Positions 5,234-48,000 of a DNA stretch of 64,000 nucleotides are shown here, one piece after another. Source of the stretch: Lagopus muta (lineage: Eukaryota; Chordata; Aves; Galliformes; Phasianidae); NCBI RefSeq assembly GCF_023343835.1, contig NC_064438.1, positions 14,613,077-14,677,076 on the forward strand, in the 5' to 3' direction. Each line of letters starts with the position of its first letter. Positions within the stretch are counted from its first letter, which is position 1. The position numbers and the translations under genes were made by a program. The notes beneath the pieces are model-generated. The model was not told the origin of the DNA. It searched no databases and worked only from the letters and a program-made list of their open reading frames with translations.

Positions 5234-5448
5234 GAATGCCTGCAGTCTGTAATCCTGACATGGTCCCTGTGGCAATACCACCTCCTGCAGTCAATCCTCA
5301 GCACCTGTGTAATGAAGAGGACCTGAAATCTATCCAGGACATGTTTCCCAACATGGACAGAGAAGTAATCCGCTCAGTGCTAGAAGCTCAGAGAGGGAAC
5401 AAGAATGCAGCTATCAACTCCTTGCTTCAGATGACTGAAGAATCATAG
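5234..5448 (+). CDS. TOLLIP: TOLLIP last coding exon (CUE domain), partial gene
   Basis: This is the final coding exon of Toll-interacting protein, an adaptor that binds ubiquitin and phosphoinositides, sorts cargo on endosomes and dampens Toll/IL-1 receptor signalling through IRAK. The exon follows a T-rich tract and CAG at 5231-5233, and its first two bases complete a split Gly codon. It then reads [18 protein letters not shown], matching the end of the mammalian linker. A CUE ubiquitin-binding domain of about 45 residues follows, with the hallmark MFPNMD (the MFP motif) and a di-leucine-type SLLQM near the end. The frame stops at TAG 5446-5448, at the same place relative to the CUE domain as in mammals. 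Only the C-terminal 71 residues are in the window; the MIT-interacting N-terminus and C2 domain lie upstream. The identification is very secure. Confidence 0.96.
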
Positions 5449-13970: not shown

Positions 13971-15031
13971 TCATGTCTGTTTTTGGCTGATTTCTGATTG
14001 GTAATCGTCTGCTTCAAGGCTTTGTGAGTTGCACCCGTTTATACACTGGCATTGATCCACATAGACGTAGCTATAATTTATGCTTGTTCCGTTTTGGCAA
14101 TTCAGGATCACATCTCTTCTGTGGCTGCTGAGCTCTTGGCAGCAACTACAGTTATGTTGCATCTGGTTTGCTTGAAGAGAATACCTGCGTTCCGACAGAA
14201 AAAGAAGACTTTCTCATTAAGCATCAACAAATAGGAGCATTGTGTGAATATGATTTTAATATAAGAAGAGTGAAACTCTTCTTGCTTCATCTGAGTCTGA
14301 TTCTATTCATGAGACTCATACACACATTACTTTTGCTGTTGTTCTATGACCATTTAATATAAATTCAGTAGAAACAAAGCTGAGGAGATTTCAACTTACG
14401 TGGAGGAGCCAGGACAAGTCCCTTCACAGTATCCCAACTCAACAGCTTCAGGAGATTCACAGTCTTCATATTGGATTACAGTTTTTGTGCTGTAAGCTTT
14501 GCAGTTAGTAGCTTCAAAAGAATAGGAAAAAAAGATAAACATGCTTCAAATCTCTAGTTCAGAACTGAACACTAAAACAATTTTGAAGCGCATGATGGCA
14601 ATGGTGATGAGGAGACAGTTGGACTAGATGATCTTATAGGTCATTTCCAACTTTGTGATTCTATGATTCTATGTCTCACTACTGAGACTATGTACAATAG
14701 GCAACAGTAGATGCTACTGTACTACAGCTGGAGATTTCAAGTGGTTTTTTTTATCTTGGCTGTACAGCGTGTTCGGAAGATCTAAGCTGAGGATTGAGTG
14801 TGAGGGTTTGTTTTGTGGTATTCACAGTCCAGGAAATTCACCATTGCTTCAAAAGGAAAAAGTATAGAAAGGGTTACTGAAAAGTGAAAGCTAGGTCAGT
14901 GAAGAATCTTTCCTTCCACTCAAATATAGATAGAAGTTTAATATAATTACCTGTAAGAGGAAAGCACTTGCTAGGTATTACTTACGTTTACATATCTTGC
15001 AGCAGCCATCAGAAGTAGTCTCTGCTTCATC
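13971..15031 (-). CDS. MUC5B: MUC5B exons 38-40: C-terminal cystine knot
   Basis: Exons: 38, 14986-15031 ([15 protein letters not shown]); 39, 14400-14511; 40, 13971-14184. The CK domain runs from [11 protein letters not shown] to CQCINGC, with eleven cysteines, [11 protein letters not shown], and the NCSCC cluster that contains the dimer-forming cysteine in VWF and mucins. [12 protein letters not shown] matches mammalian AMQHQCTCCQE. A tail of about 18 residues follows before TGA. By homology, mucin monomers dimerise through this domain in the ER. Frame and splice sites are clean. Confidence 0.92.
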
Positions 15032-18000
15032 CTTTGCAGAAATAAAGAAGGATACGTATTATAACACGGATGACAATACTGAGTGTGTTAACAAGTTAGC
15101 ATTGCTAATGCTCAGCTGAAGGCTTCTCTGTGATGAACACTGAATGAAACCGTGGATGTCTTGCTGGCTGATTCATCGCCACAGAAATCTTGAATCGTTG
15201 TGAGCTCGTGTAAAAATACTAAGCTTCACTTTGATACTGCTGTTACAGCAATGTTATTTTCATCCTTAAAACATTTCTGCAACCTCAATGAAAATAACTT
15301 GTTGCATTCTTCCTGACTTTCTCACCCCCTTGTTCTTCTACACTGCATTCAGTAAAAGCTGGAGCGATGAAAACTTACGGGATCGCACTCCAGTGGACCG
15401 TAGTCGGGACATACTCGTTTCGTTTGAACTGCAACGTATTGATCTTCAATTAATTCACATTTGTAGTGGCTGCACAGATCAAGTGGCAGAATCTTACCAA
15501 CCTAAGATTTTAAGGGAAGAAAAAAAACATTTTTTTTCCATTGTAATCAGATACTGTATGATTACTTCAAAAATGTTTGAGTTCAGTTCTCACACCTCAA
15601 AGATTTTTAGATGAATTTGAGTTCTTTGCCAAATGGGAGAAGCCTAATTTTTGTGAACTATGGCTGTCCTGAAAGTTCATATCGTAGATCTTGGGGCCAG
15701 ATTCTTTCCAGGGGCATGCAGCAGTAGAATAGGGGGCAGTGGGCACAAACTGGCACACAGGAAGTTCCATACGAGGAACTCCATATGGAGGTATTCAGGA
15801 ATTTCCAAGTAAGTCTTCAGAGACCTAAGTTTTTCCCTGTATTAGTGTTTTCAGAGAACTTTCAGTGTTAAATAAATTCTGACTGGGAAGGGATATATTG
15901 GCTGGTGGGAGAAGGAAAAGATTACTTACTTCGAGCAGAACAGTCTCGTTATTTAGATGAATTCTGCAAGATGATACTTCACACTTCCCACAGCACTCTC
16001 CATCCTCAATCTTATATTGGTGACCCTACTCACAAGAGATGAAAGAGAAACTATGTTGAGTTGGTGATGGACGGTTCTGGTCTTACTACAGTACTACTGT
16101 TTGAAGGCTGATAGGGCATCCCATTGCATCTCAACTCACCACTGGACAAGATGTTTCACATTTAAGTGCTTCGCACTTCACAATGTTTTTCCCATTCTCA
16201 GAAGAGCAGGTACAATTCTTACATGAATCTATTACAAATGTTCCACTCTGAAAAATTGGAAAGAAAAAATAACATCTGTTCATAAAGTGTCTTTATAACA
16301 CACAGGTGAAGGTGGAAGACGTGCTGTATACTAAGTTTTCTGAAGTGCAATTAAGCAAAAAATCTGGCTTTATTTTTGAAGGTTCGTAGGGTTATTTCAA
16401 ACATTTGAGCTTTAACAATACATCAGCTTCTTTGGAAAAAAAAAAAATACTGAATTCCACAAATAGAAGAAAGAAACTGCTAAAAATGATGCATTCTTGT
16501 TTTAAGCTTCTTGAGGAACAGAGGTTAGGGTTGTAAATTGACATGGATTGGCAAAAGAATTTTCCAAAGGGCTTTTGCGGTAGAAAGGGTGTACATTTAA
16601 TTTCTAGTAAAATGCCACTGTAATTATGCCATGCTCACCTCATATATTTTACCATTAATCTCACAGGTGTTTGAACGTTGCCCTGAAAAACAACCAAAAT
16701 AAAAATCAGCAAACTCAAACTGTGAAAATACATAAGAAGTTAAGATGTTACCAACGTTTGTTAATAGCATAGAGATTATGGAAAATTTGAATTCAAGCTC
16801 AAACCAGTATAGCTGGATGTTAAAGAATCTATCTTTTAATTGGCCAGAAGAGTTGAGTAGAAATGGCACCAAACTTGAGCTAAACACAAAAAAATTCCTT
16901 TCTTGCCCTTTCCATATTGGTTCTTTTCAAATTAAATGAGTTGTATTCTGTTTGAACACTTGAAGACCAGTAGCCTTCAAAAATGCCTTTGTATATTGAT
17001 ACCTTATGACTTCTCAGAATGGAACTTGGATGTGAGATCAACTGGAAAAGTGGTATTTTTTACTGAAGTAATACAGTTTGATAACATGCCAGATTCCATT
17101 TGTGGCTTTCACAGCATTACTTCAGACTTCGTAGTTCCTCTTGATTTTCCTCTTTCAGGCTTATTTGTAGCTAGTTTTCTTTTTGATTCTTTTATTTAAA
17201 AAAGTAAGTATATAAATAAACACATGGATTATAGATTTTATTAATGTTCTACAATACCGCAAGGGTAATTATTATTTCTCGTACGTCAGCAATTCAGTTT
17301 CTAATTATGATTTACTTTGTTCCTTCATATTACCTGCTTTTCTAGTGAACTCCGAAGATTTCTGCTGGCTCACTGTTATGTTTACGTATCTTTGTTTAGC
17401 TGTAGTTACATTAATGTTAATGAACTTGAAGTACTTGAACTATCCCGTTCTCTGAGCAGATATTAAGAATAATGTTTTTAGCTGAACTCGTATTGCATAT
17501 TTAGCTAGGAATTGATGTGTATTCAATAAGTGAGAACAATTTAAAGAAGGTTTTGCTGTTACCATGATGGATGTAGGATCTGCCTAGATACTAACAGAAG
17601 CACAAAGGTAACTTCCCACAGTGTAGCCTGGTGCATACATTGGTATTTTTAGTACTTACGGCATTCAAGTTCAGGACAGCAGGGGTCTGTTACTGGTAGT
17701 ACAGGTAAGGCAATAAATCCTACGTCACAAACTACTTCCTCTATATCGCATGGGAGCAGCCGACATTCTGCTGTAGCAGTGTCTCCATCACAGACACACT
17801 CCTGGCACTGCGTTGTCCATACCTCTCCAGGCTGAAAATACAAAAATGATTTATTTTGATGTGCCCTTTCGCTCTAGTTATTCGTGGCCAACTTGACTTA
17901 GACTCTCACGCTTAGTAAGGATTCCAGATAAAAGTTTTGGTACCATATGATTTCCAAACTGAAGAGCAAGCAAGCTGCGAACAATAAAATAACTGTCTTC

Positions 18001-21000
18001 TATGTAGGAAAAAAAAAAAAAAAAAAAAAGGCATTGTAACATTTTCATAGCTAGTCCACTTATTTCTGTGATGTTTGAATATTCTTAAAAGTCTCTGCTA
18101 TTATATTACTGGACTTTTCTATCTCTAGATGCATTCGAAGCCTGATGGTGCAAGGTTTGAAATATGTTTTATCAGGATATTCTTCCATGACAAACTCTGT
18201 TATTAAAATACGTGCAAGTTGATTTGAAATGACAGAGGATAGAAGTTGGGATGTTTTTGCAATGGTAATATATTAAAATAAAGAAGGGAATCACCTTTCG
18301 TGGAGGATTGACATCAGTACAGTTTCTTTCTGGTAAATCTGTGATGGATGTTGCTGTGGATGAGGGGGCTTCTGTTGTAGTCTCTGAGGACACCGAAGTT
18401 AAAGCAGTTGTTGCAGGACATGGCCCCTGAAATGGAGCAATTTCACATTCTTTGCTGCAAAGTGCATAAAAATTACATCCAGCCTTATCTGTTCTGTTGT
18501 ATACAACTTCTCCTGTAGAAAAAAAATGAAAGAAAAGTTAAAAGACCAATGAAATTACTAAGAAAAAAAACCCCAAAACAAAAAATATTGTGAAAACATG
18601 AAGCATATTACTCTGTTGAAGTGATTATTCTATTTAAGATTTATTTGATTATCTTTAATACATTATTAAGGGATCACACTGCTTATGAAAATGATTATAA
18701 CCATCAAGCAAGAAGCTTACCGGGAGAAAACAAGCCACCAAACACGTGGCAAAAACATGGAGTTGTTCTGCTTGCTTCTGTTGTGGAAGGTGTGGTGGGG
18801 GAAGAACTGGAGACTGCAGAAGTGCTTGTAGTGTGTCTTGGCTGTGTAGTACCAGCTGTTGAGAACAAAACAGTTTAGCACAGCATTTGGTTCTCCTAAT
18901 TGTTACGTACTATAGGAATCTATCAGAATCTGGACAAACCAAACCAATGTTTGGTTGCATTCGACTATTTGACCAACTTTCTGTAATAAATAGATATTGT
19001 TGAAATCTTACTGCTCTGTACCAAGTAACATTTGGGATTTTGCAAATAATAGTACTTCTAGCATTAATATATTTTAATGTCTCAGAGTCACCAATATCAC
19101 CTTTATAGTAATAAATATGAAACCACGGAATCTGCTAAAAGATGCAGGATAAGTGCAATGGCTGATAATTTTTTTTTTTTCCATTAAAAGAAGAACATGG
19201 CATTAGTTGACGACATGGGTGTGATAGTACTGGTAGGGGAGCTGGGCACTGAGGTTGTGGTGGTGACAATGGTGGTCATGCTTCCTGCTACAGGAGGTGA
19301 GGTCATGGTGGTGCTGGCACTGGAGGTAGGTACGGTGGTCCCTGCACTTGTGGAAGAAATGGTGGTTGTACCTTCTGTTGTAAGCGGAACAGTCTTGGTT
19401 GTACTTCCAGCTGTGACTGTAGTTGGGCGTGCTGACGGAGTGCTGGTGGTCTTGGTGACTCCCGTGGTGCTTGTGGTGGTGGTCTCAGAAGATGTGGGGA
19501 TAGTAGAGGCTGTAGTGGGTGTTGTTGTAGTCTGGTAGCGTCCAGTGGGTGGCGTTACTGAAGTGGTTCCAGTTGAGGTGCTTGGCGTAGAGACAGTAGT
19601 GGGTTTTGCTGTAGGCTGGCTTTGACCAGAGGGCGAAGTTGCTGGAATGGCGCTTGTTGACGACATGGGTGTGATAGTACTGGTGGGGGAGCTGGGCACT
19701 GAGGTTGTGGTGGTGACAATGGTGGTTGTGCTCCCTGGTACAGGAGGAGTGGTCTTGGTGGTGCTGGCAATGGAGGTAGGTATGGTGGTCCCTGCACTTG
19801 TGGAAGAAATGGTGGTCTTAGCTTTTATTGGAGGAGGTAATGTCTTGGTGGTGCTGGCACTGCTGGTAAGTATGGTGGTGCTTTCTGCACTTGTGGATGT
19901 AATGGTGGTTGTGCTTTTTGTTGGAGGAGGTGAGGTCTTTGTGGTGCTGGCAATGGTTGTAGGTACAGTGGTCCCTGCACTTGTGGAAGAAATGGTGGTT
20001 GTACCTTCTGTTGTAAGCGGAACAGTCTTGGTTGTACTTCCAGCTGTGACTGTAGTTGGGCGTGCTGACGGAGTGCTGGTGGTCTTGGTGACTCCCGTGG
20101 TGCTTGTGGTGGTGGTCTGAGAAGATGTGGGGATCGTAGAGGCTGTAGTGGGTGTTGTTGTAGTCTGGTAGCGTCCAGTGGGTGGCGTTACTGAAGTGGT
20201 TCCAGTTGAGGTGCTTGGCGTAGAGATAGTAGTGGGTTTTGCTGTAGGCTGGCTTTGACCAGAGGGCGAAGTTGCTGGAATGGCGCTTGTTGACGACATG
20301 GGTGTGATAGTACTGGTGGGGGAGCTGGGCACTGAGGTTGTGGTGGTGACAATGGTGGTTGTGCTCCCTGGTACAGGAGGAGTGGTCTTGGTGGAGCTGG
20401 CACTGGAGGTAGGTACGGTGGTCTCTGCACTTGTGGAAGAAATGGTGGTCTTAGCTTTTATTGGAGGAGGTAATGTCTTGGTGGTGCTGGCACTGCTGGT
20501 AGGTATGGTGGTGCTTTCTGCACTTGTGGATGTAATGGTGGTTGTGCTTTTTGTTGGAGGAGGTGAGGTCTTTGTGGTGCTGGCAATGGTTGTAGGTATG
20601 GTGGTCCCTGCACTTGTGGAAGAAATGGTGGTCTTAGCTTTTATTGGAGGAGGTAATGTCTTGGTGGTGCTGGCACTGCTGGTAGGTATGGTGGTGCTTT
20701 CTGCACTTGTGGATGTAATGGTGGTTGTGCTTTTTGTTGGAGGAGGTGAGGTCTTTGTGGTGCTGGCAATGGAGGTAGGTATGGTGGTCTCTGCACTCGT
20801 GGAAGAAATGGTGGTCTTAGCTTTTATTGGAGGAGGTAATGTCTTGGTGGTGCTGGCACTGCTGGTAGGTATGGTGGTGCTTTCTGCACTTGTGGATGTA
20901 ATGGTGGTTGTGCTTTTTGTTGGAGGAGGTGATGTCTTTGTGGTGCTGGCACTGGAGGTAGGTACGGTGGTCCCTGCACTTGTGGAAGAAATGGTGGTTG

Positions 21001-24000
21001 TACCTTCTGTTGTAAGCGGAACAGTCTTGGTTGTACTTCCAGCTGTGACTGTACTTGGGCCTGCTGACGGAGTGCTGGTGGTCTTGGTGGCTCCCGTGGT
21101 GCCTGTAGTGGTGGTCTCAGAAGATGTGGGGACAGTAGAGGCTGTAGTGGGTGTTGTTGTAGTCTGGTAGCGTCCAGTGGGTGGCGTTACTGAAGTGGTT
21201 CCAGTTGAGGTGCTTGGCGTAGAGATAGTAGTGGGTTTTGCTGTAGGCTGGCTTTGACCAGAGGGCGAAGTTGCTGGAATGGCGCTTGTTGAAGACATGG
21301 GTGTGATAGTACTGGTGGGGGAGCTGGGCACTGAGGTTGTGGTGGTGACAATGGTGGTTGTGCTCCCTGGTACAGGAGGAGTGGTCTTGGTGGTGCTGGC
21401 ACTGGAGGTAGGTACGGTGGTCTCTGCACTTGTGGAAGAAATGGTGGTCTTAGCTTTTATTGGAGGAGGTAATGTCTTGGTGGTGCTGGCACTGCTGGTA
21501 GGTATGGTGGTGCTTTCTGCACTTGTGGATGTAATGGTGGTTGTGCTTTTTGTTGGAGGAGGTGAGGTCTTTGTGGTGCTGGCAATGGTTGTAGGTATGG
21601 TGGTCTCTGCACTTGTGGAAGAAATGGTGGTCTTAGCTTTTATTGGAGGAGGTAATGTCTTGGTGGTGCTGGCACTGCTGGTAGGTATGGTGGTGCTTTC
21701 TGCACTTGTGGATGTAATGGTGGTTGTGCTTTTTGTTGGAGGAGGTGAGGTCTTCGTGGTGCTGGCAATGGAGGTAGGTACAGTGGTCCCTGCACTTGTG
21801 GAAGAAACGGTGGTTGTACCTTCTGTTGTAAGCGGAACAGTCTTGGTTGTACTTCCAGCTGTGACTGTAGTTGGGCCTGTTGGCAGAGGGCTGGTGGTCT
21901 TGGTGACTCCCGTGGTGCTTGTGGTGGTGGTCTGAGAAGATGTGGGGATCGTAGAGGCTGTAGTGGGTGTTGTTGTAGTCTGGTAGCGTCCAGTGGGTGG
22001 CGTTACTGAAGTGGTTCCAGTTGAGGTGCTTGGCGTAGAGATAGTAGTGGGTTTTGCTGTAGGCTGGCTTTGACCAGAGGGCGAAGTTGCTGGAATGGCG
22101 CTTGTTGACGACATGGGTGTGATAGTACTGGTGGGGGAGCTGGGCACTGAGGTTGTGGTGGTGACAATGGTGGTTGTGCTCCCTGGTACAGGAGGAGTGG
22201 TCTTGGTGGTGCGGGCACTGGAGGTAGGTATGGTGGTCTCTGCACTTGTGGAAGAAATGGTGGTCTTAGCTTTTATTGGAGGAGGTAATGTCTTGGTGGT
22301 GCTGGCACTGCTGGTAGGTATGGTGGTGCTTTCTGCACTTGTGGATGTAATGGTGGTTGTGCTTTTTGTTGGAGGAGGTGAGGTCTTCGTGGTGCTGGCA
22401 ATGGAGGTAGGTACGGTGGTCTCTGCACTTGTGGAAGAAATGGTGGTTGTACCTTCTGTTGTAAGCGGAACAGTCTTGGTTGTACTTCCAGCTGTGACTG
22501 TACTTGGGCCTGCTGACGGAGTGCTGGTGGTCTTGGTGACTCCCGTGGTGCTTGTGGTGGTGGTCTCAGAAGATGTGGGGACAGTAGAGGCTGTAGTGGG
22601 TGTTGTTGTAGTCTGGTAGCGTCCAGTGGGTGGCGTTACTGAAGTGGTTCCAGTTGAGGTGCTTGGCGTAGAGATAGTAGTGGGTTTTGCTGTAGGCTGG
22701 CTTTGACCAGAGGGCGAAGTTGCTGGAATGGCGCTTGTTGACGACATGGGTGTGATAGTACTGGTGGGGGAGCTGGGCACTGAGGTTGTGGTGGTGACAA
22801 TGGTGGTTGTGCTCCCTGGTACAGGAGGAGTGGTCTTGGTGGAGCTGGCACTGGAGGTAGGTACGGTGGTCTCTGCACTTGTGGAAGAAATGGTGGTCTT
22901 AGCTTTTATTGGAGGAGGTAATGTCTTGGTGGTGCTGGCACTGCTGGTAGGTATGGTGGTGCTTTCTGCACTTGTGGATGTAATGGTGGTTGTGCTTTTT
23001 GTTGGAGGAGGTGAGGTCTTTGTGGTGCTGGCAATGGTTGTAGGTATGGTGGTCTCTGCACTTGTGGAAGAAATGGTGGTCTTAGCTTTTATTGGAGGAG
23101 GTAATGTCTTGGTGGTGCTGGCACTGCTGGTAGGTATGGTGGTGCTTTCTGCACTTGTGGATGTAATGGTGGTTGTGCTTTTTGTTGGAGGAGGTGAGGT
23201 CTTCGTGGTGCTGGCAATGGAGGTAGGTACGGTGGTCCCTGCACTTGTGGAAGAAACGGTGGTTGTACCTTCTGTTGTAAGCGGAACAGTCTTGGTTGTA
23301 CTTCCAGCTGTGACTGTAGTTGGGCGTGCTGACGGAGTGCTGGTGGTCTTGGTGACTCCCGCGGTGCTTGTAGTGGTGGTCTCAGAAGATGTGGGGATAG
23401 TAGAGGCAGTAGTGGGTGTTGTTGTAGTCTGGTCGAACTCAGTGAGTGGCGTTACTGGAGTGGTTCCTGTTGAGGTGCTTGGCGTAGTGCCTGGAGTTGT
23501 TAATGCTGTCGAGCAGCGTTGGCGGTCACAGCACAGCACACTGACCTGGTAGTTGAAGCACATGGGGTACTTGCTGTTCTGATCCTGGTTTCTGCACTCC
23601 AGCCCAACATCGAGGCTGCACTTCAGTTTCTGGTCCAAGCTCTCCAGGCTCCTGTCAGGGTAGTTTTCAGCACGGCACCTGATGTCCTGCGGCTGGGAGC
23701 ACAGGTCATAACCAGCGGCACGGATATTTGCATAGGTCTCAAAGTCTCCATCCTGGCTACTAGAGCTTGGGAAATCCACATCAAACCACTGCGTCCAGGC
23801 ACAGCGCGGCTGGCAGCTGTTGGTTGGGGGAGGGGTCGTGGCAGTAGTGGTGGGTGAGGTGGGGATGGTGACTGTGCTCCCAGTCGTAAGAGGAGTGGTC
23901 TTGGTGGTGCTGGCACTGGAGGTAGGTACGGTGGTCTCTGCACTTGTAGAAGAAACGGTGGTTGTACCTTCTGTTGTAAGCGGAACAGTCTTGGTTGTAC

Positions 24001-30000: not shown

Positions 30001-33000
30001 AATGTGTGACCATCAAAACCCTTTGGAAAGTACACAGTGCAATTATAATTCATGTACATGAGGTACACAGAATATATATTCAAAGATAGCAGCAAGGAAT
30101 TGCTGTATACTTTACTACACTTTCAGAAGAAGTGTATAGAAAATAAAACTCACGACAAATTGATGGGGTTCTCCAGGCTATGCAGACACCAACTTCATTA
30201 CATGCTTGAGCATAGGCAGCTACTGCTGTACAAAAACAATCACAGTCTCCTCCAGAGTCACAGGCACAAGCATCTGTCACACAGGCTTGATAATATCTTG
30301 CTGGTTCAATCTGTCATAAAAAAATAAGTATTACACTATACATTCTTCCTTCTAAGTTTTGTCAACTTCGCTAGACTGATTTTCTTAAAATTAGGATCTC
30401 AGAAGGAAGGCCTATATCAGTTATTTCTTTTGTTATGTTTATATACACTGTTAGACACCAGACGTAATGCCAGATAATAATTCAAATCACATATTGACAT
30501 AATTTTAGACATCTAGACTTGTGTCCCAGTGAAAGATTGGTTTCATGTTCCCAAGCCGTACTAGGCAGCCATAACCTGAAGATCTCTAGTAGTGGAAAGA
30601 ACTAAGGTAATAGGAACAGCACAAAATTATCCTGCATTGTTGATATGTACTGGCAGTTAATACTGCCTCATTACTACCCCAAAATGTTATTTCATTGAAT
30701 TTGTGTTCATTACGTGGTATGTTTTATCCAAGTTACACCATAAGAAAATATGTAGTAATTCTGAAATTATTGTTCTTTCCCAATAAGTTAGTATCATCTT
30801 CTATGATCTATATAGCCTACTATTTCTTACAGGTAGGGGCTATAGATCTGTTTGACTGTTCAAGATATAGGCTGAAGTTACACAATTCAAAGTGAAACAT
30901 GCTGTCTAATGAATTAAACATATATGGTAAAGTGTATGAAGATTCAGTAACAGTCAGGCCCTAATCTTCACAGAGTCAACTCCTGCCCTGGTGATACCTG
31001 TGAGTGACAGGCAGCAAAGACATTGCTGTTGATGATGCTACACTGCTTCTCTGACCAGGACTTTCGATAAGGGTTGGTAGAGCATGGGTCCTTTAAGAAG
31101 TGAGCATCAGGACATGTGGAGGATACTTTCCAGCTGTTTCCGAACTCTAGGACATCCTCCACTACAGACAGACTCCTTGTAGTGAAGTCATTGATGCCAT
31201 TGCCATCATAATTTCCACAGAGGCCACAGATCTGACCCTGCAAAAGGAAAAAAAAATTATGATGGATATGAGAAAACAAAGATCTGAAACTGAAAGAATA
31301 CATGAAATTCAGCTCTTAGATTGCCATTCTATTCTAACTTTCCCAAAGATTCCCACTGAAGATACATTTTAGGTTTAGATATTCTGGAAAAGCAGCCGTC
31401 TGTTTCCTCAGCAACAGAACATGACCACCAAGGCTACAAACAGCTACAGACTTTCCTTTTTTTAAATCTGAACAGTACAACTGTCTTGATCATTTTATCC
31501 ATTTTTGAGGACGTATCAACTTTGAGGTACATCCTCTTAACATTTAACAAAGGAAATGAGGACTCAACTAGTTGACCATGCTACAATGCTTTTCATTTAT
31601 GCTTTGTTTTATACAATGGATGTTCATACAAAAGACAGTCTTAGAAAGCTGTCATAAGTACTGCCAGTACACCCATGTAACTTACTCGTTAAGTCTACTG
31701 TGATGACTGCTGACAGATGGAAAAATAAATGACATTTTCCTTGCATTTCCAGAAATATCTCATTCCAAATTTCGATATGTGAAATGGTGATAGGCTGTAA
31801 CAGATGCTAAGCTTTCTCTGTGGATTCAAGGATTATACTCTGCCCATGCTTTGTCCCTTGTTCATATATATACTTGAAAAATATATAACATTTTACTTAG
31901 TATTTTACTTCCTTGTTTTTTGGAGTATAATAATTTGGACTTATGTGTGAATGTGTACTGGAAACAATAGATGATTTTTCAAAATCAGGACTACTGAATT
32001 GATTTCTACACATGTAGCTATGTAATCTTAGTAAAGTCTGATAAGCTTTACCAAGATTCACAAAGTAATTTTAACAAGTACGGTCCATAGCAGCAGTTTA
32101 CCAACTCAAGTTCTGTCAGGCCAAATAGAAACTGAACACTGCCTTGAGCACTCCAAAGAGTAGCTGCATTTTTACGTGTCTTCCTAAGGTACCAGAGGAA
32201 TAGAAAATGACATATGACGTCCTCCAGGAATGCTAGAGAAATCACCTGTTTGGGATATTGTTTTAGTCAGATAAAAAATTAACACCCAGTCTAGGTCTAG
32301 ACTACTAGTTCCGCACCTTAAATTCAGCGCTCAGCTTGATGAAGATGCTGGTTTTCTTGTCCCACATGAGGATCAGTCCGCTGGTGGTATCAATCACTGT
32401 GTACATACCTATGTAACGGACTGTGAATGGTACTTCACCACCTTGTCCTCTCTGTATCACACTGACACGCTCCTCACTGAGTATCAGTTCATAGTGCTGA
32501 AAACGGAGGAAAAGGTGATTAGAAATGAACCTAATAGCTACAGCTGTGCTACTGAACACTTTTTTCTCCACTTTTAAGAGTACTAAAACCAGTTTGTTTA
32601 ATGAAAAATACATCATCCAAATGTAATGTGGTTCAAATCTCAGGTTCATGGAATTGTGGTAAAAACGTACTTTAAATGGAACAGATTGTTGATGAAAAAA
32701 TGATGTCATGGTAGTCATAGAGGAACTACAGTGCACAGAGTAAGAAAATCTTCTGATGTGATCAGCCAAAATTTTGCTACAGGTAGTTTTCCTCTAGAGC
32801 TGTAGTTTGTCCAAGGGTAAGTATAAGACAGCTTTGTGAGGCTGGAATAGGCGGATAGCAGGGAAGCTGCACCAAATACTTCACCTGATTCTGGCTTAAG
32901 CTTAATTTACAGGTTGATCTGCTTTTCAAAATATTTTCTCTAAACTTCCTTGCGGCAACAGATATCCTGACTTCTCCCAAGCTTTACACAGATACTGAAC

Positions 33001-36000
33001 AAAAACCCCCTGGTCTGTAATGTAATACCTACATACCTCTAAGAAAACTTTGATAGATTTTGAGCAAGTTGTCCCAGTGCTGCCGCAGGGAATATTTTCA
33101 GTGATAACCTGGAAGGTCCCATTCACTGTGTCACTCTTCCCGCAGTGGTTCTGAGTAGTAAAATTAAAAGCATGTTATTGTTTCAGATAAGATCAAGATT
33201 ATATTACAATGTAGTTTTGTTAAGTAACAGTACCCGGACTAACGTGTATTTGCAGTTTCCACTGAAGCTGAATGTCTGGTCATCAAAGGTGGTATAATGT
33301 CCATCTCCGTAAACAGCACACGTGCCCAGGCATTGTTTTTTGGTGCATTCCCACATCCTATTCTTGCACACACTAGGAAAGAGAATTAAATGTTTTAGTA
33401 ATAAAGTAACTCGCTGTCTTATGCAGACATATCCCAAAAACTCAGCATTTGTTTGGCATCTCATTCTTGATAAATGTTATATTGATTCTGAAGTTAAAAC
33501 AGTCTTTTACATTTCCCATGTGAAGTATTAAAGCAAAGTTCTCTTCTTCTATTCCAAAAGCATGAACTGCAAAAAAGGGTAGAATGTAATGGACACCATC
33601 CTCCCAAAGGTTTTCTCCCAGTTTGTGCCTCAGCTGTCTACCTGCAACAAAAGTTGCTCATCTTTCTGAGTCAAAACTTAAAAGACCCATCAATTGATGT
33701 AATGCACAGTCTAAATCTCTCCTCACTACTGTACAGCTTAAGATCTTAAGGCAAATGATGGAACCAGGAATGCAACCTTCCAGAAAATACTTACCAGGTA
33801 TTACAGTCAGCATTGATCTTTTCCCCGGATTGATACGTGGCTCCATTGTGAATACATGGACATTCCTCTTCAGGAATACAACCACCCTTCCCATCTAACA
33901 CAAGTCCAGATGGGCACACACAGCCAGATACACACTGTGTGCTATACTGGAAAGGTCAAGAGGAAGATACAATTTCAGAATAAAATAATCACACTAGAAA
34001 AACGAAGATTAGATCAACTTAAAATGTCTTTATATGTTCTATTTCCGCCCAGCTTAAATAAGAGAAGACTGATGTATTTATAGGCCTCTACAACAAAGAC
34101 GAAGCTATTAGCATATAAAGCTGCTAAACATTAGATGCATTCTGATCCTAAATGCATTTGTTCCAGTCTGTGAAATTTGAACTATACCGGATCTTAAGAC
34201 TTGCTCTGTGTTAGCTGAAGAAGCCCTATGCTTTGTGATGGATGACTTGTGATTGAATGAATGGACTTTAAAAAGAAAATAAGTAAATTTAGTTTGAGTG
34301 AGTTGCACTGAAAACAGATGCATCTCTCATGGTACCTATTCATGAAATTACGCATGGCTATCATGCACTTAGACAAAGATATAATTTGATGTGCAATATC
34401 ATTGGAAAGAAATGATTGCTCCTAGCCAGCCTACAGGAAGTAATTTTCTCTTAATGAAGTAAAATATGCGGCAAAGCTCTAAATATTTTCACTACTAATT
34501 ACTCTTACTTTGAAAGACTTGAACTGTTACAACACTGTGTAAGACATAAAAAGAAATACTTCATATTATATACACACATGTTTATGTCCTTACACTTGAT
34601 CCATTTTTGTGTCATGAATTTTCACGCAAATCCTGTGCTGAAAGTCAGAAAGCCATCACCTTTTTCAATTTAGTCAGATGAAACAGTTACAAAATGCTAG
34701 CTCTAATGAGCGTGATTTGAGAAGTAGCTGAAGAAACTTTGACACTTATAAAAGTTGGATGTTACTTCGTTAAATTTTATTCTGATGATCCTATCGTTAA
34801 CAATTCATAACGTGTTTTGGGGATTTTAGCATACAAAGTATCTGTGATGTAGATTCAGAGAAGGAGAGTTAGATCAATGGTGACTGTAGCACAAAGATGA
34901 CAGACAAAACTTGAAAGTACCATTTCATCTAGCCATGACATACTTACACACTGCATATCCAGAGTATGACAGCTTTTTTGACACTCTGATCCAGTTGCTC
35001 CTGCTGTGCTGTTTCTACAGTCTAAGTAGAACATGGGAGATTCACAAACTAGAGGAAGGAAAGAAGTGAGAGAAGTAAGAAATAGCTGGGGGTTTATCAC
35101 ACAGCTGTAGAAATAAAAGCCATCTAGAAATTGTTTGGAATTTGTACATTTCAGTTAGTAAGGACTGCTATCCCTACTCAGTCTGCTAAATAGGAACCCA
35201 ATTGTAGATTCACTTCAGAGCACTGAATTCCCAGAACCTTCCACAGTATATCAGAAAAAAATCCTTTAGAACAGATCTTCTCATGAACCTAGGGTTACTT
35301 CTGCCTTTTATAGTATAGAAATACTTCTATTATTTAAAAATCCATTAAGAAATATCAATTCTACCAAATATTTCTGTCCAGAACCTGGCACAGAGAAAAA
35401 GACAAGTGCAAGTGGAAGACTTTTTTTTAACCTGGAATTTGATCGGGTTCTCCAATGCAAGTCAGTTTTCCCTGGATGCAAGTGCTGTAAGAGAGGGAAA
35501 AACATTAACTTTTAACCATATATTGAGACTGAGAGCTACCTCTGTCAAATTTCAGTACTTTATAAGGAATTAATTGAATTCCTGAATACTATTTTACAGA
35601 CCCAGGGAAGTGTTTCTCTCAACACCACTACCAATTATGCTTTCATAATAGGAAAAACTAGAGTTTGAAATGGATATATTTCTGCTTGTTACTTACTTTC
35701 TCTTAAGATTTCTCTTTGCTTTTTCTGTCGTGTGTTTTGTGCTTGAAAAGTCATAAAATCAAATAGAAAATACTCCTATATACAATTGCTCTATCAATCT
35801 GGATGTATATATTATTCTTAAAAGTTTTTAAAAAATGTTTATGATATTACTATATTGAAACTCACACAGGACAAGGTGAGAACAATTTAAATTAAGCTTA
35901 TTTAGGTAATAAAATGCATATACTATTGCTTGAATGTTTTTTAAAAGCTTCCCTTACCATACAAGCCCATTTTCACGGACAACTTCTCCAAGTGGTATGG

Positions 36001-39000: not shown

Positions 39001-42000
39001 CTATTTCGTTTTCACAACAAAACTAGTTTATTTTCACTTGATAAAAATCTAATGTACTTATCCCATGTGTGGAAATAAATGCAGGTCCCTACCTGATAAT
39101 GGCCTAGATGCTTTGTTCCCCACGTGGTTAATAGTTTTTTTCTCGTGCTTATTTTGCATTCTTACCGTTTGTCCTTTATTCAAGCTGAGGGTCACTGTCC
39201 TTAAGCATGTTTCAGTGCTTGTCATGCCACATTTGCGTAGTTCTACCAGGATGGTGAATATTTCATCTTCACATTGCTGAAAATAAATAAAAATCCCAAC
39301 AGTTATTCAATGAAAGGCTAATTACAATAGCTGTCCCTGTCAAAGTCTCTCTTGTCAGGGAAATAGTAAAAATGAGTAATTTTCTTTTTTTTTTTTTTTA
39401 GACTGAATTGTGCAAATGGAAAAAAAGAAAGCATAGAAGAATCAGATCAAAAAGGTCAAACCATTTCACTTACACATTACTGTAACAAAATGTTCTGATT
39501 ACAATAAATTTTTTACTTCTTTATTTCTCTTAACTCATTTTTATAATGGTTCAAAACCTAAATGAAATGTATCAGTTGACATGATCTGATTTTTCTTTAT
39601 TTCTGCTTCCAAGAAAGAAATACTTATTAGATACAGTTAACAGGGCAAAGTTATTTAATCCAGTAAAACAGCTGGAACAATCATGCAGAAGAATGTATAT
39701 TAAGCAATACCTTAAAAAGATAATAGTCCTCAGCATTTATTGTATGACAGAACTGGAAATTCCCTGGAAACCACAATTTACTGTTGCATGACATCCTAAT
39801 ATTTAGCTGATAATTAAATCATTTGAATGGCAGAATACATTCCAGTAAGTGTCTGATTAACTGAAGCAACTCAATATACATACGTCAAAAGACAAGTTTT
39901 GAAGATGTTGATTGAGATTACCTATCCTCTCCACAAGCACATAAGGCTTTATGACCAAGTAATAGTCTCACCTTAGAAAGGACGTAAGTGCAGTCTCCAT
40001 AGACATCATAATGCTTTTTATCATATGTCGAAATGTGCGAGCCTCCCTCTACGGAACATATTCCTGGACATGACATATCTTCGCAATTCCATTTGCTTCC
40101 ATTGCATGTACTGGAAGAGGCAAGACAAACTTAGCTGAAATCAGCAATAGCAGTCTAGACTTACAGAAATTACAATGACATTAGGTTTAGAACTGCTTTT
40201 CCCTTTCAATCTCTAGTTTGAATACACGGCAAATCCAGGTTTAAGACTTTCTCAAATATTGTGAACATATGAAGTAAAGCATTAAAGGGAGTGACTGTGA
40301 TATGCATTCACTTTGTTCATTTGTTTCTATTCTTTTTTTGGACAGGTTAACTCAGTAGCAACAGGTGCTAGATGAGTAATTGCTTGTCTTCTACAGCTTA
40401 CATAAAACATAATGCCAAATTAAAATATCTTCTGTTTTCTTGTATAAATTTATAAGAAACTAAGAGAAATGTGACTCCACATCTACTCCTAGTGAGTAGA
40501 TAGAGTATGTCTGTTTTCTAAGGTAATGTGGTACTGTACAGGTACAGGATTAATAATTGTGAAACTATGGTTGTGTAGCTTCTCTTATTTTCTTCAGAGA
40601 AAATAAATATTTGCAAATACGTAAATTACTGCAACTTCATTCCCTTTAGAGAAGTCCAAATGTTTGAACAAAATAAACAAAGAGGAAGCACTTGAATTCA
40701 CTGGTGAGAAATCTAAACACTGTAAATCCTTACTTTGATCACCTTGAGCTCAAGTGCAATGACAGTTAAGGCTGTTGCTAAATAAAAGAAAGAATGTTCG
40801 TTGAGGTTATTTTGGAACTGTAGCGGCTAGTTAAATACACAGATCAATTACGATGATGTAATTGCAAACAATAAATCATTAAACCCACTAAATATATTAG
40901 AGGAAATAAAGAGTTAAGAAAATAGCAAGAGTTACCAGGAATAGCACTGCTCTGAGAAAGAAGTTCCTGGAGCATAAGTGTTGCCATTGTAAATACAGGA
41001 GCATTGCTGACGGGAGATGCAGCCAGAATTGTTTATGTCATCAAAAACGGTTCCTTAAGTTAAAAACAATAACAGCAGAATTTAATCAATTAAAGAGGTA
41101 CTTTCCATACATGGGAAAAAAATCATTTTTGTTCATTACTAAATGTTGCTTCAAAGACAGATTTGCAGCTGCTGTGAACTGTCATAGATGTACTGAGGAC
41201 AGTAGGACTATGCCAATTTACAGACTTTCAACCTTTCTATTCTTAAATTCCACCTGCTTTAAAAGGGAGTTATTTTAGTACAGGTGGCTTGCTGAAAGAC
41301 TAGCTTTGATCTGTTTGCTTTTCTGCTTTCCTGCTTTCTAACTATTGCGTGTGCCCTGGCAATTAATTCCAGTGCCTTTCCTCAGTTGATAAATGATAAA
41401 TACTTATCACTTGCAGTTGTGAAAAATGCAAATATAAGGGCCTTAAGCCTCATGGAATCTGTCTTGTTTATTTTGAGATCAGAAATGTGAGTATATAAGA
41501 ACTTGCCTTGGGGGCAGAAACAACCATCCATACAGTGCTCTTCACAAAACTGAGATCGTTCAGGATTAGTGCATGTGTCAGTGCAGGGGGAGCTGCACTC
41601 CGAATACTGCATGTTGTAAGGACATGTCTTGGCTGAAAGGTTAATAAAAGGAGAGTTTTTTCAGTCTGAAGTATTTCTAGTTCACTGTATATGGAAATAA
41701 GTATGTTCATTTACATTTTTTCAGCTAGATTTAAAACCACACTAAACCACAGACCTATCCCCACTTGTCAAAATCTTTAACTTTACTCATTCAGATCTAT
41801 GTTTTACAGTTGAGATTTGCTTTTCATGACTGTGTGAAGAAAGACTTAACTGATGCCAAAATGACTGGAGTTCTAGGCACATCAGGAAAATGGTTCTGCA
41901 AAGCTAGCAAGGTTTCTGTTAAAGGTAGCCTTTTCAAGAACATCTGCATAGCTAGGGAAACGTAAAAATCAAGTTCCTAAAGCTTCAGTGTATTCAGATT

Positions 42001-45000: not shown

Positions 45001-48000
45001 CTCTATAGTAATTCCAGCTTGACTGTATGGCAGTTGAACTCTACAGAAAGGTAGAATTAATACTGAATATTTTCTGATCCGGATGTTTGATAAAGAGGAA
45101 AAAAAAAAGGCTTGTGCATTCCAGTGTCTTACAAGGATATAATGCAGTTGTGTGGAAAGAAAAGCAATTAAAAAATAAAATGGTCCAGTACCATCAAATG
45201 TGGATTTAAATTTGAATCCAACCTCAGGATTTTTCATAGAAATCTTGTTTTTGAGGTAATCTTTAAATGAACAATTGATTTATCGTGACTTGAATTAATA
45301 GCAACTTATTCATTATTTCTCTGGGTAAAATTGTCAGACTTATTGAAGAATGCTGATCTTATTTCCCCACTATACAAAAAGTACTTGGCCAACTTGGGGA
45401 AAAAAAACCAAAACATCTGTATTTACCAAACAAATGGTATGAGTAGACTCACCTGTTGCTGTTGATCAGGACAGTATCCTTCGTTAGCTCAACAGCTACA
45501 CCTTCAAGTTTTATGGCAATGCGGTGGATTATAGGAACATTTTCCACCACGGTACGCCTAATCTGGATGTTGAATTCTTCATAGGGAGTGTTGCAATGGG
45601 ATGCGAAAACATAATTACAGAGCCCAGGGTAGTGGTAGATGTCTCCATCAAAAGTCTTGAAGTGGAAGTTGCCCCATGTGCTGCATACACGGCCATTGTG
45701 AGCAGGGTTGGAAGCTGGAAATTTAAAACTAGCTGTAAAAAATGACTTAAAATCCTAGCCTTAACATGGTGAATCAAATTATCTAAGGCTTCACTCTGTC
45801 ACAGTTTTCCCTTGACCACCTCCATTTGTTATTTCCACCCATCTATCCATTATAACAAGTCACCATGTATTCATCCTTCATCATCTGTCTGCTGTTCATC
45901 ACATATATACCTGTAAATGGTTGTAGTCAAGTTCAAGTGGATTATTTAGTTGTTCACATTTCATACAAGATAACAGTTCAATAATATGCTATGTTTCTTA
46001 ACTGGCCTCTTTCTCCTCTTATGACTTCATGACTTCTTTTACCAGTGCATTTCTGTTTGTGCTTAATTCCTTCGTATACACCTTCTAAAACTGAATACTT
46101 ATTGAACACATTTCATTTACTTAACTTACGTGTTATTACTGGATTTGATGTTTGCTGGATGATTTTCACTTCAGATGAAACTGTGAAAGAAGAAAAAAAA
46201 TTAAGAAAACCAAATCTAGTATAACAATTCCAAGACTTGCATCTAAAACTGACCTAGAAAGAAAAGATCAGTGTGCTAATCTGACAGTGTTAAGCCTGGT
46301 GCTGATTTATACAGGATGTGAATCAGGTTAAAAGTCCACATTACACTTCATAATTCAATCATAAAAAAATTGCTTTCAGCTGTGAGGATTTCCATTTTCT
46401 ACCTTGTAGTTTTGATTTTTTTTTTTTTTTATGAAACTCCGAATTGTGTTAGCATAGGCAGAAACTCACAGCTCTGCATATCAGAGCTCTTCAGACACAA
46501 CAACCAATACAAAGAGTTAAGCTACACTAAATTAGCCTAATACAAAAGCATAGCTGGTTTTTGTTACATCTACTCTGACTAAGGAGGAAATCAAAAACTT
46601 AAAAATCAAAACTGTCCTATTCCTGTGTTCTGCTTCAACGATTATTTTTGTACCTCTAGTTAAATAGTAGCTCAACTACTCAATTGTCTTCCAGCTGAAT
46701 TCTCCTTCTCTTTGTTCTGTCTCCATAAGTTTTGAATTGCTTTCTACACATGGCCCAACTATCGTGCTTAGAAAAACACCTGATCCTGTGCTCCAAGTTT
46801 GGTGCTCTAAGCTCCTATTTTTCGTAAGTAAACATGTCAGGCACTTCCCATTTAAGAAAAATGGCTACGACTTTATTTTATGAAAGACTGAATCCATCCA
46901 GAATGAAATAACCATGCCTGGAAAACGTTGACTAATACCAACCTACAACATGTCAAGTCTAAATCCTCAGAGGATTTAGGTGATGAAATGACTCATGTCT
47001 GAATGAGCACTTCTGGTGTCTAAAGTACTTGCCAGTTGAAGTGCTGCCTGTGCAATTTAGCTTTAAGTTCCCTTTCTCATTATATAACAGACAGATCCAG
47101 AAACTCAGAACTAGAGAACTCAGAACCACCACACCAAACAAGGAAGGATTTTTACTGGAAATGCACACCACCTAAGCAAACTGAGTACTTGATCTCAGAG
47201 CTGAAGGGATTCAAACTTGCACTACCAAAGAGAAACCCAAGACACTCCTAATTTTGGAAGGGTGTTCTGGGAAGCTTCACCATCTCTAGAAGTTGTTCCA
47301 GTGTCTGCAGGAGTTTCCTTTCGTCCCTAAGCTTCTGTTCTGTTCTCATTTATACATGACCATTTGTGACGTATGAAGAAGTAACTTTAATCTTTTTCTG
47401 CTTTCTGTTGGTCTTTCAGTATCACAGATACTATCATTAGATAAATACATTCATGCCACTACGATTGTTGAGAAAATATAACAAATGCCACTGTGAGTCT
47501 TAATAATGTGACAATTTGCTTTCATTCAACACATTCACAGGAGCTTCAGTGGACATAGAATCATCCTGACTTCACCTAAGAGCCAATACTCTTTAAAATA
47601 TTGTGAATGCTTATTTAAAAGTGTGAGAACTTTTGTAACAGAACAAAACAGTATATACATGTATTTTAGTCTGTTAATTTTTCTCAAGGAAATGCAGTGT
47701 TTTTTTTACTAAGCAAGTATTATTTCCAAGGAAATTCTAGCTGCACTAGTTTATCTAGCATTATCTAGCAATTGCATAATGCCATGCTCTTGATCCTTAT
47801 AAAAATAGGTGCTTATTGCTTCCAAGAATACCAGTACATGGTAATTCAATCTTTGATTATTTGGAAAGAGTTATGAATATTTGTGGATGCACCTTGTCAA
47901 GCTGTTATCCAGCTGCCACCCCATACACACAATTCTCATTACAACTTATAGAAGTTGGAATTGGACCCTGAACATGAAGTTAGAGAAGATGGCATGGGAT

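What the first reader, a model, noticed from the sequence alone, without database searches (positions are those of the whole stretch)
17832..18294. The VWD4-C8-TIL4 exons of this MUC5B are missing, with the frame preserved
Exon 32 ends (phase 0) where mammalian MUC5B goes into VWD4, and the next recognisable exon, 463 bp further on, is the VWC exon that normally follows TIL4 (also phase 0). Several exons' worth of domain, a D assembly present in MUC2, MUC5AC, MUC5B and VWF, has no counterpart in the window. The clean phase match means the shortened protein could still be made, giving a C-terminus closer to that of MUC6, which lacks D4. The alternative is an assembly deletion: the gap contains a run of 21 A.
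Basis: partly seen in the sequence, partly recalled or inferred. Interest (0 to 1): 0.85.

Follow-up and report, generated by a model that had tools for sequence, protein, structure and literature searches.

The report
Bird MUC5B mucin lacks D4 domain
Birds appear to make a shortened version of the mucus protein MUC5B, missing a globular module near its tail; this was noted in chicken in 2006, and the comparison here suggests that it was lost once, early in bird evolution, and is not a sequencing error.

Summary
In the TOLLIP-side mucin (MUC5B, minus strand) the exon 18295-18512 is followed, after a 463-bp intron (17832-18294), by the VWC1 exon 17660-17831, both in phase 0 at the junction. The intron holds no detectable trace of VWD4-C8-TIL4. 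It is not an assembly deletion: 29 of 29 other bird proteins that read past this exon have no VWD or C8 after it, while 14 of 14 non-bird mucins examined beside them have both. A tree of N-terminal halves follows species relationships, which puts one loss on the bird stem, after the split from crocodilians and before the neognath radiation; palaeognaths are unresolved. Both losses correspond to even numbers of cysteines (32 and 6 in five reptile relatives). The tail left, VWC1-VWC3-VWC4-cystine knot, resembles MUC19 more than MUC6. Consequences for dimers and granule packing are inference.

The parts
17832..18294 (-). 463-bp intron at the place where VWCN-VWD4-C8-TIL4 exons lie in other MUC5B-type genes; contains a 21-A run (T on the sense strand) at 18009-18029
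   Evidence: GT...AG, stops in all sense frames, no D4 match; the matching interval in the neighbouring MUC5AC is about 4.6 kb with seven exons found
   Evidence: two alligators, gharial, lizard and snake read ...DPPRKxNETWM at the same residue position
   Evidence: 62.4 bits to alligator VWC1 against 18.5 to alligator VWCN
16683..17659 (-). 977-bp intron lacking the exon for the truncated VWC' domain, which MUC5AC, MUC2 and ovomucin of the same genome have
   Evidence: (16684-17659 scanned); in MUC5AC the exon is symmetric (phase 1-1), so its loss keeps the frame
16639..16682 (-). exon: start of VWC3
   Evidence: GT-AG, in frame
16140..16247 (-). exon: VWC3
   Evidence: Pfam VWC over protein residues 137-196
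15930..16025 (-). exon: end of VWC3, start of VWC4
   Evidence: domain names by alignment to MUC2 7qcu
15379..15501 (-). exon: VWC4
   Evidence: aligned to human MUC2 structure 7qcu
14986..15031 (-). exon: end of VWC4
14400..14511 (-). exon: cystine knot, first part
   Evidence: Cys_knot, E 4.8e-9
13971..14184 (-). last exon, coding part with stop TGA: cystine knot, second part
31172..33320 (-). VWD3 exons (31172-31270, 33231-33320): third VWD present
   Evidence: converted to window coordinates
39957..40058 (-). VWD2 exon
   Evidence: converted
45440..45685 (-). VWD1 exon (the profile match runs into one TGA; the tblastn match 45470-45688 shows none)

Best explanation
This is the orthologue of MUC5B in a grouse-like galliform bird. 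It really lacks the VWCN-VWD4-C8-TIL4 assembly (about 400 aa, 32 cysteines in reptile relatives) and, separately, the truncated VWC' module (about 35 aa, 6 cysteines). Both exon blocks are bounded by matching phases, so their loss left an intact reading frame and no odd cysteine. The losses happened on the bird stem, after the split from crocodilians and before the neognath radiation (supported by distribution and tree; whether palaeognaths share them is open). Inferred mechanism: the protein still forms tail-to-tail dimers through the cystine knot and polymers through D3, but the tail is a plain stalk VWC1-VWC3-VWC4-CK without the globular base. The VWCN dimer interface is therefore gone and the VWC1 interface has lost its D4 contact; so is whatever part of the calcium- and pH-dependent contact with the N-terminal region depended on D4. 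MUC5AC, MUC2 and ovomucin in the same cluster keep D4 and may supply those functions.
For: Exact intron and in-frame splicing. No D4 remnant in the window, with working controls. C8 census of the cluster: MUC5B 3, MUC5AC 4, ovomucin 4, MUC2 4, MUC6 3. No VWD or C8 after this exon in 29 of 29 bird proteins; 26 of 29 run on to VWC1. VWD4, C8-4 and VWCN present in 14 of 14 non-bird mucins and VWC' in 12 of 14; D4 present in 4 of 4 bird MUC5AC/MUC2 proteins; no fourth VWD or C8 in 9 of 9 further bird MUC5B-type proteins, of which only Gavia spans the site with both flanking exons. N-terminal tree groups birds, crocodilians, turtles and squamates in species order. Even cysteine counts in 5 of 5 reptile proteins measured. 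Published for chicken. Interfaces and role of D4 in human MUC2 and MUC5B: PMC10082768 and PMC6851316 (passages).
Against: No RNA or long-read data were available. The bird proteins appear to be mostly automatic gene models (P0031, P0034 and P0038 also skip the VWC1 exon; the turtle P0042 skips VWC1 too). The kiwi model P0048 lacks D4 but also lacks the two exons flanking the site, so it says nothing either way, and the tinamou models start downstream. Support for birds+crocodilians (87) and for turtles with these (81) is below the 95 mark, and the tree leaves mammalian MUC5B, mammalian MUC5AC, bird MUC5AC and the amphibians unresolved at the base, so orthology with mammalian MUC5B rests on position and on the pre-D4 exon. 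VWC' was not matched in 2 of 14 non-bird proteins (P0058, P0065). The functional part is inferred from human proteins.
Confidence: 0.88

Rival explanations
1. Assembly artefact: the D4 exons exist but were lost in a collapsed or misjoined region near the A run.
For: A 21-A run lies in the intron; mucin loci are hard to assemble (general knowledge).
Against: 26 of 29 other bird proteins run from this exon to VWC1 without D4 and none of the 29 has D4; published from an independent chicken assembly; no N in the window; flanking splice sites intact.
Confidence: 0.02
2. Decaying gene: the loss is part of pseudogenisation of MUC5B in birds.
For: Two exon blocks gone; gene models vary between birds.
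Against: All ten 3' exons are open with GT-AG splice sites. The C-terminus is 352 of 377 residues identical to Centrocercus and 267 of 377 to the duck Oxyura. PTS exon open for 2597 aa. Chicken ESTs support 11 of 37 exons (PMC1552070 Table 1).
Confidence: 0.03
3. The VWC1 exon is a fusion of VWCN and VWC1 left by recombination between two homologous VWC-type exons, which removed everything between them.
For: VWCN (D4N) and VWC1 exons are alike, both start in phase 0, and VWCN weakly matches this exon (24.6 bits).
Against: The exon matches alligator VWC1 over its whole length (62.4 bits) and VWCN poorly (18.5 bits), so breakpoints more likely lay in introns; VWC' was lost separately, beyond VWC1.
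Confidence: 0.05
4. Several independent losses within birds instead of one stem loss.
For: No palaeognath protein in hand spans the site.
Against: The same two losses at the same places in Galliformes, Anseriformes and many Neoaves.
Confidence: 0.06

Closest known systems
Chicken Muc5b (Lang, Hansson and Samuelsson 2006, PMC1552070; outline with abstract and sections 6, 7 and 20 read)
   Same: MUC5B orthologue in the same gene cluster, lacking the C-terminal VWD domain; the same statement in print.
   Different: The sections read do not mention VWCN or VWC', exon phases, MUC5B of other birds or dating; Figure 4 is not held. In that assembly the chicken Muc5ac 3' end fell in a gap; in this genome it shows a D4.
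Mammalian and reptile MUC5B-type mucins (proteins of Alligator, Gavialis, Zootoca, Notechis, Terrapene, Cricetulus)
   Same: D1-D2-D3, PTS, Cys-rich pre-D4 exon, VWC1 (not in the Terrapene model), VWC3, VWC4, cystine knot.
   Different: They carry VWCN, VWD4, C8-4 and VWC' (all matched in P0042-P0047 and P0075).
MUC19
   Same: Gel-forming mucin said to lack D4 but to keep C domains and a CK (PMC11207715, passages).
   Different: Different gene; said to lack D' as well; not compared here by sequence.
MUC6
   Same: No D4; 3 C8 domains found for it in this genome.
   Different: Lacks the VWC domains as well (PMC10082768, passages); this MUC5B keeps three.
Ovomucin alpha subunit (in the same cluster)
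   Same: Avian gel-forming relative.
   Different: Keeps D4 (L011) and is described as having no PTS domain (PMC1552070). Proteomic lists carry a chicken 'MUC5B' record Q98UI9 of 233 kDa (PMC6992205 passages), which I recall to be ovomucin alpha, so database 'MUC5B' can mislead.

Membership tests
MUC5B orthologue | Position at the TOLLIP end of the 11p15-type mucin cluster | tested here: met
   TOLLIP CUE exon at 5308-5442, + strand, 89% identity to a recalled human piece; further VWD/C8 gene groups, which I label MUC5AC, ovomucin, MUC2 and MUC6 by order, follow on the same contig
MUC5B orthologue | Sequence grouping with MUC5B rather than MUC5AC/MUC2 | tested here: inconclusive
   Grouse and turkey relatives sit with reptile MUC5B-type proteins (support 100), apart from bird MUC5AC and MUC2, but mammalian MUC5B and MUC5AC are unresolved at the base. 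The pre-D4 exon favours MUC5B: 58% identity to Cricetulus MUC5B against 38-46% to two mammal MUC5AC and 47-50% to three bird MUC5AC. The window's own N-terminus was not in the tree
MUC5B orthologue | Three N-terminal VWD and C8 domains | tested here: met
MUC5B orthologue | C-terminal VWD4 assembly (VWCN-VWD4-C8-TIL4) | tested here: not met
   its absence is the finding and is shared by the bird proteins examined, so orthology by position is kept, but the mammalian domain definition is not met
MUC5B orthologue | VWC1-VWC'-VWC3-VWC4 stalk | tested here: not met
   VWC' exon not found; VWC1, VWC3, VWC4 present
Gel-forming mucin (polymerising) | C-terminal cystine knot for dimerisation | tested here: met
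   Pfam Cys_knot E 4.8e-9; aligned to the CK of MUC2 7qcu and VWF
Gel-forming mucin (polymerising) | Disulfide dimers and multimers in the secreted protein | not testable with these tools
   needs protein work
MUC6-type C-terminus | No D4 and no VWC domains before the knot | tested here: not met
   VWC domains retained
MUC19-type C-terminus | No D4, C domains and CK kept | not tested
   domain order agrees with the description in PMC11207715; no MUC19 sequence was compared

The most novel reading that the evidence does not exclude
All living birds, palaeognaths included, carry a MUC5B that lost VWCN-VWD4-C8-TIL4 and VWC' once on the bird stem. This reshaped the main airway mucin into an open-stalk dimer and shows that the D4 assembly is dispensable for a respiratory gel-forming mucin.
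Probability: 0.65. Interest if true: 0.5.

Novelty: new member of a known kind. Interest (0 to 1): 0.4.

Why it matters
In human MUC5B, D4 forms the globular base of the tail dimer, and that tail domain is thought to help pack mucin in granules (PMC6851316); birds are a natural deletion experiment about 400 aa wide. A loss that is clade-wide, in frame and cysteine-balanced makes the role of D4 directly testable by comparing bird and reptile MUC5B tails. It also warns that bird mucin names are unreliable: the same gene appears as mucin-2-like, mucin-5AC-like and mucin-5B.

Tried and rejected
Assembly artefact: rejected by other species. Relocated or orphan D4 exons: none seen on contig C9 between 14.64 and 15.00 Mb among the VWD and C8 hits, which I sorted by position into five mucin genes; the search lists are lower bounds. 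Hybrid VWCN/VWC1 exon: not supported. Loss of a GDPH cleavage site as a consequence: rejected, because human MUC5B has GGSH there (PMC6851316 passage) and the two reptile D4 stretches that I read (P0042, P0045) have no GDPH. Short repeats flanking the intron as a deletion mechanism: only short repeats of the size that chance gives. The small last exon of the D4 block in MUC5AC (E8), needed to go from phase 1 to phase 0, was not located. Structure prediction and fold searches were not run: sequence evidence was enough. TRF on L010 found nothing (its longest period is 500).
Full report
WHERE IT IS. The window is G000:C9:14613077-14677076 of a 1.03-Gb genome in 165 contigs. A TOLLIP CUE exon lies at 5308-5442 on the + strand (query recalled). 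The mucin runs on the minus strand from at least the VWD1 exon (45440-45685; the 5' end was not mapped) to 13971. The genome is a galliform other than chicken: its lysozyme differs from the recalled chicken protein at five positions (3, 15, 41, 45, 121) in the aligned exons, exon edges apart. The mucin C-terminus is identical to Lagopus leucura at 286 of 292 aligned residues, to Centrocercus at 352 of 377 and to turkey at 320 of 376. So a grouse or ptarmigan is likely; I do not name the species.

OBSERVATION. The intron is exactly 17832-18294 (463 bp). Ten exons from 18855 down to the last splice with GT-AG into one frame...[10 protein letters not shown] | [15 protein letters not shown]... VWC3, VWC4, cystine knot, TGA; 377 aa from the pre-D4 exon to the stop, 43 cysteines. 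Pfam sees VWC and Cys_knot only; human MUC2 7qcu is the best solved relative.

NO REMNANT OF D4. In the neighbouring MUC5AC gene (L009) the same two flanking exons are about 4.6 kb apart and enclose exons for VWCN, VWD4 (three), C8 and TIL4 (two), phases 0-1, 1-0, 0-1, 1-2, 2-1, 1-2, 2-1. A small exon (phase 1-0) must follow before VWC1, which starts in phase 0; I did not locate it. As a joined protein this block scores Pfam VWD 108.5 bits and C8 67.2 bits and matches human MUC2-C over nearly its whole length. tblastn of these seven exons against the window finds D1, D2 and D3 exons of the same gene, a weak VWCN hit on VWC1, one E 0.008 hit at 58162-58239 and hits of E 0.4 or more, nothing in the intron; against ovomucin (L011) and MUC2 (L012) it finds the D4 exons. 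Whole-genome C8 hits sort along the cluster as MUC5B 3, MUC5AC 4, ovomucin 4, MUC2 4, MUC6 3 (gene labels are mine, by position, in the order given for chicken in PMC1552070).

A SECOND LOSS. Human MUC2 has VWC1-VWC'-VWC3-VWC4 before the knot, VWC' being truncated (PMC10082768 passages). MUC5AC has a phase 1-1 exon for VWC' (CNTSLC...CCPTFEC, L009:3298-3194), and MUC2 and ovomucin have a CCPxxxC motif in the same place (by tblastn MUC2 was found and ovomucin was not). In the window the interval 16684-17659 has no CC-x(2-4)-C motif in any sense frame and no match (best hit E 0.97, elsewhere). A genome-wide search with it finds MUC5AC (E 2e-16), two places on C1 (E 0.25 and 2.4) and MUC2 (E 6.8), not this gene; it missed ovomucin, so its reach is short. 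VWC1 lies between the two missing blocks, so there were at least two events unless one complex rearrangement removed both.

DISTRIBUTION. Protein search with the 377-aa tail returned 16 proteins, 15 named as birds and one unnamed; 8 of the 16 cover the pre-D4 exon (the other 8 were dropped for this count). A search with the pre-D4 exon in a long query returned 21 proteins, all named as birds. Of these 29 proteins (28 species), none has a VWD or C8 match after the exon. 26 go on to VWC1: 25 directly and 1, Poecile, with six extra residues that look like intron read as exon. 3 (Phalacrocorax, Excalfactoria, Indicator) skip VWC1 as well, probably a gene-model fault. None has VWC' as a separate module; two weak VWC' matches lie inside VWC1. 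The species include Galliformes, the duck Oxyura and many Neoaves. The first search could see only proteins of about 207-660 aa and the second about 1592-5065 aa, so D4 forms of other lengths could be missed.

POLARITY. A third search returned 66 proteins, with candidates of about 1313-4177 aa allowed: 19 were already, 27 were examined and 20. Of the 27, the 14 non-bird proteins (two alligators, gharial, three models of two turtle species, lizard, snake, three amphibian and three mammal models) all have a fourth VWD of 171-281 bits with its C8 and VWCN; VWC' was matched in 12 of 14. The 4 bird MUC5AC/MUC2 proteins have D4 too. The 9 further bird MUC5B-type proteins have no fourth VWD or C8, but only Gavia of these clearly spans both flanking exons. 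Of the last 20 (MUC2- or VWF-like rows and two MUC5AC-named or unnamed ones; 17 non-bird, 3 bird MUC2 models), 20 have a C-terminal C8 match and 19 a C-terminal VWD match; the exception is the fish VWF P0078.

TREE. A tree of the first 1250 residues of 26 proteins places squamates, turtles, crocodilians, kiwi, Galloanserae and Neoaves in species order, with bird MUC5B as one clade (100), reptiles+bird MUC5B 100, turtles joining at 81, birds+crocodilians 87, and bird MUC5AC and MUC2 apart (quick search, SH-aLRT). Mammalian MUC5B and MUC5AC, bird MUC5AC and the amphibians are unresolved at the base, so the name MUC5B rests on the TOLLIP-side position, on the pre-D4 exon (58% identity to Cricetulus MUC5B, 38-50% to the five MUC5AC proteins of mammals and birds) and on PMC1552070. 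The distribution implies one loss on the bird stem. The kiwi protein P0048 has no D4 but also lacks both flanking exons; the tinamou models begin later. Palaeognaths are therefore undecided.

CLEAN CUT. In five reptile proteins (two alligators, gharial, lizard, snake) the missing block is 397-406 aa with 32 cysteines and VWC' has 6. The same five read ...DPPRKxNETWM where this gene reads ...NPPRK|PGE. Matching phases and even cysteine numbers explain how the tail could stay foldable.

MECHANISM (inference). All gel-forming mucins dimerise by the knot; in MUC2-C two interfaces, in VWCN and in VWC1, hold the globular regions together (PMC10082768 passages). In human MUC5B a D4 dimer forms the base of the tail, and the tail domain binds the N-terminal multimerisation domain reversibly with calcium, most at acid pH (PMC6851316 abstract and passages). 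The bird protein keeps knot, VWC1, VWC3 and VWC4, so dimers should form, but as an open stalk. A packing role would have to be done by other regions or by MUC5AC, MUC2 or ovomucin, which keep D4.

PRIOR ART. Lang et al. [quoted passage not shown] I saw the outline with abstract, sections 6 and 7, and the legends and table; figures are not held. Eight paper searches (some listings were capped at 12) showed nothing that I recognised as reporting the clade-wide loss or VWC'. Subscription papers are not covered, and a 2016 survey of mucin evolution, recalled, is not held.

VERDICT. Observation confirmed; artefact excluded by other species; core already published for chicken; extended here to many birds, with a second missing module and a date range.

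Noticed in passing
window 19184-26977 (-): A single open frame of 2597 aa holds the PTS region, with overlapping 90/93/183-bp tandem repeats.
   Followed up: partly
L010 (C9:14694001-14704000): MUC5AC PTS units appear to recur every 522 bp (spacing of blast hits); TRF cannot see periods over 500.
   Followed up: partly
L013 (C9:14863001-14873000): MUC2 PTS units appear to recur every 2372 bp (spacing of hits), perhaps a multi-exon repeat unit.
   Followed up: no
L011:8616-8368: Ovomucin D4 has GWGNEHY where MUC5AC and MUC2 of this genome have GWGDPHY, so the autocleavage motif seems absent in ovomucin.
   Followed up: no
G000:C12:10787213-10848113: Arrays of near-identical VWD and C8 exons, FCGBP-like by recall, in tandem copies about 4.5-6.3 kb apart.
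   Followed up: no
window 14600-14680: Sequence ending in TGATTCTATGATTCTATG, which looks like a CR1 repeat end (recalled).
   Followed up: no
proteins P0001-P0038: The same bird gene is named mucin-2-like, mucin-5AC-like, mucin-5B-like or otogelin-like in different species.
   Followed up: yes
P0035 (Mycteria), P0014 (Limosa): Gene models apparently fused to reverse-transcriptase-like sequence (P0035 carries PF00078; P0014 by eye), probably annotation errors.
   Followed up: no
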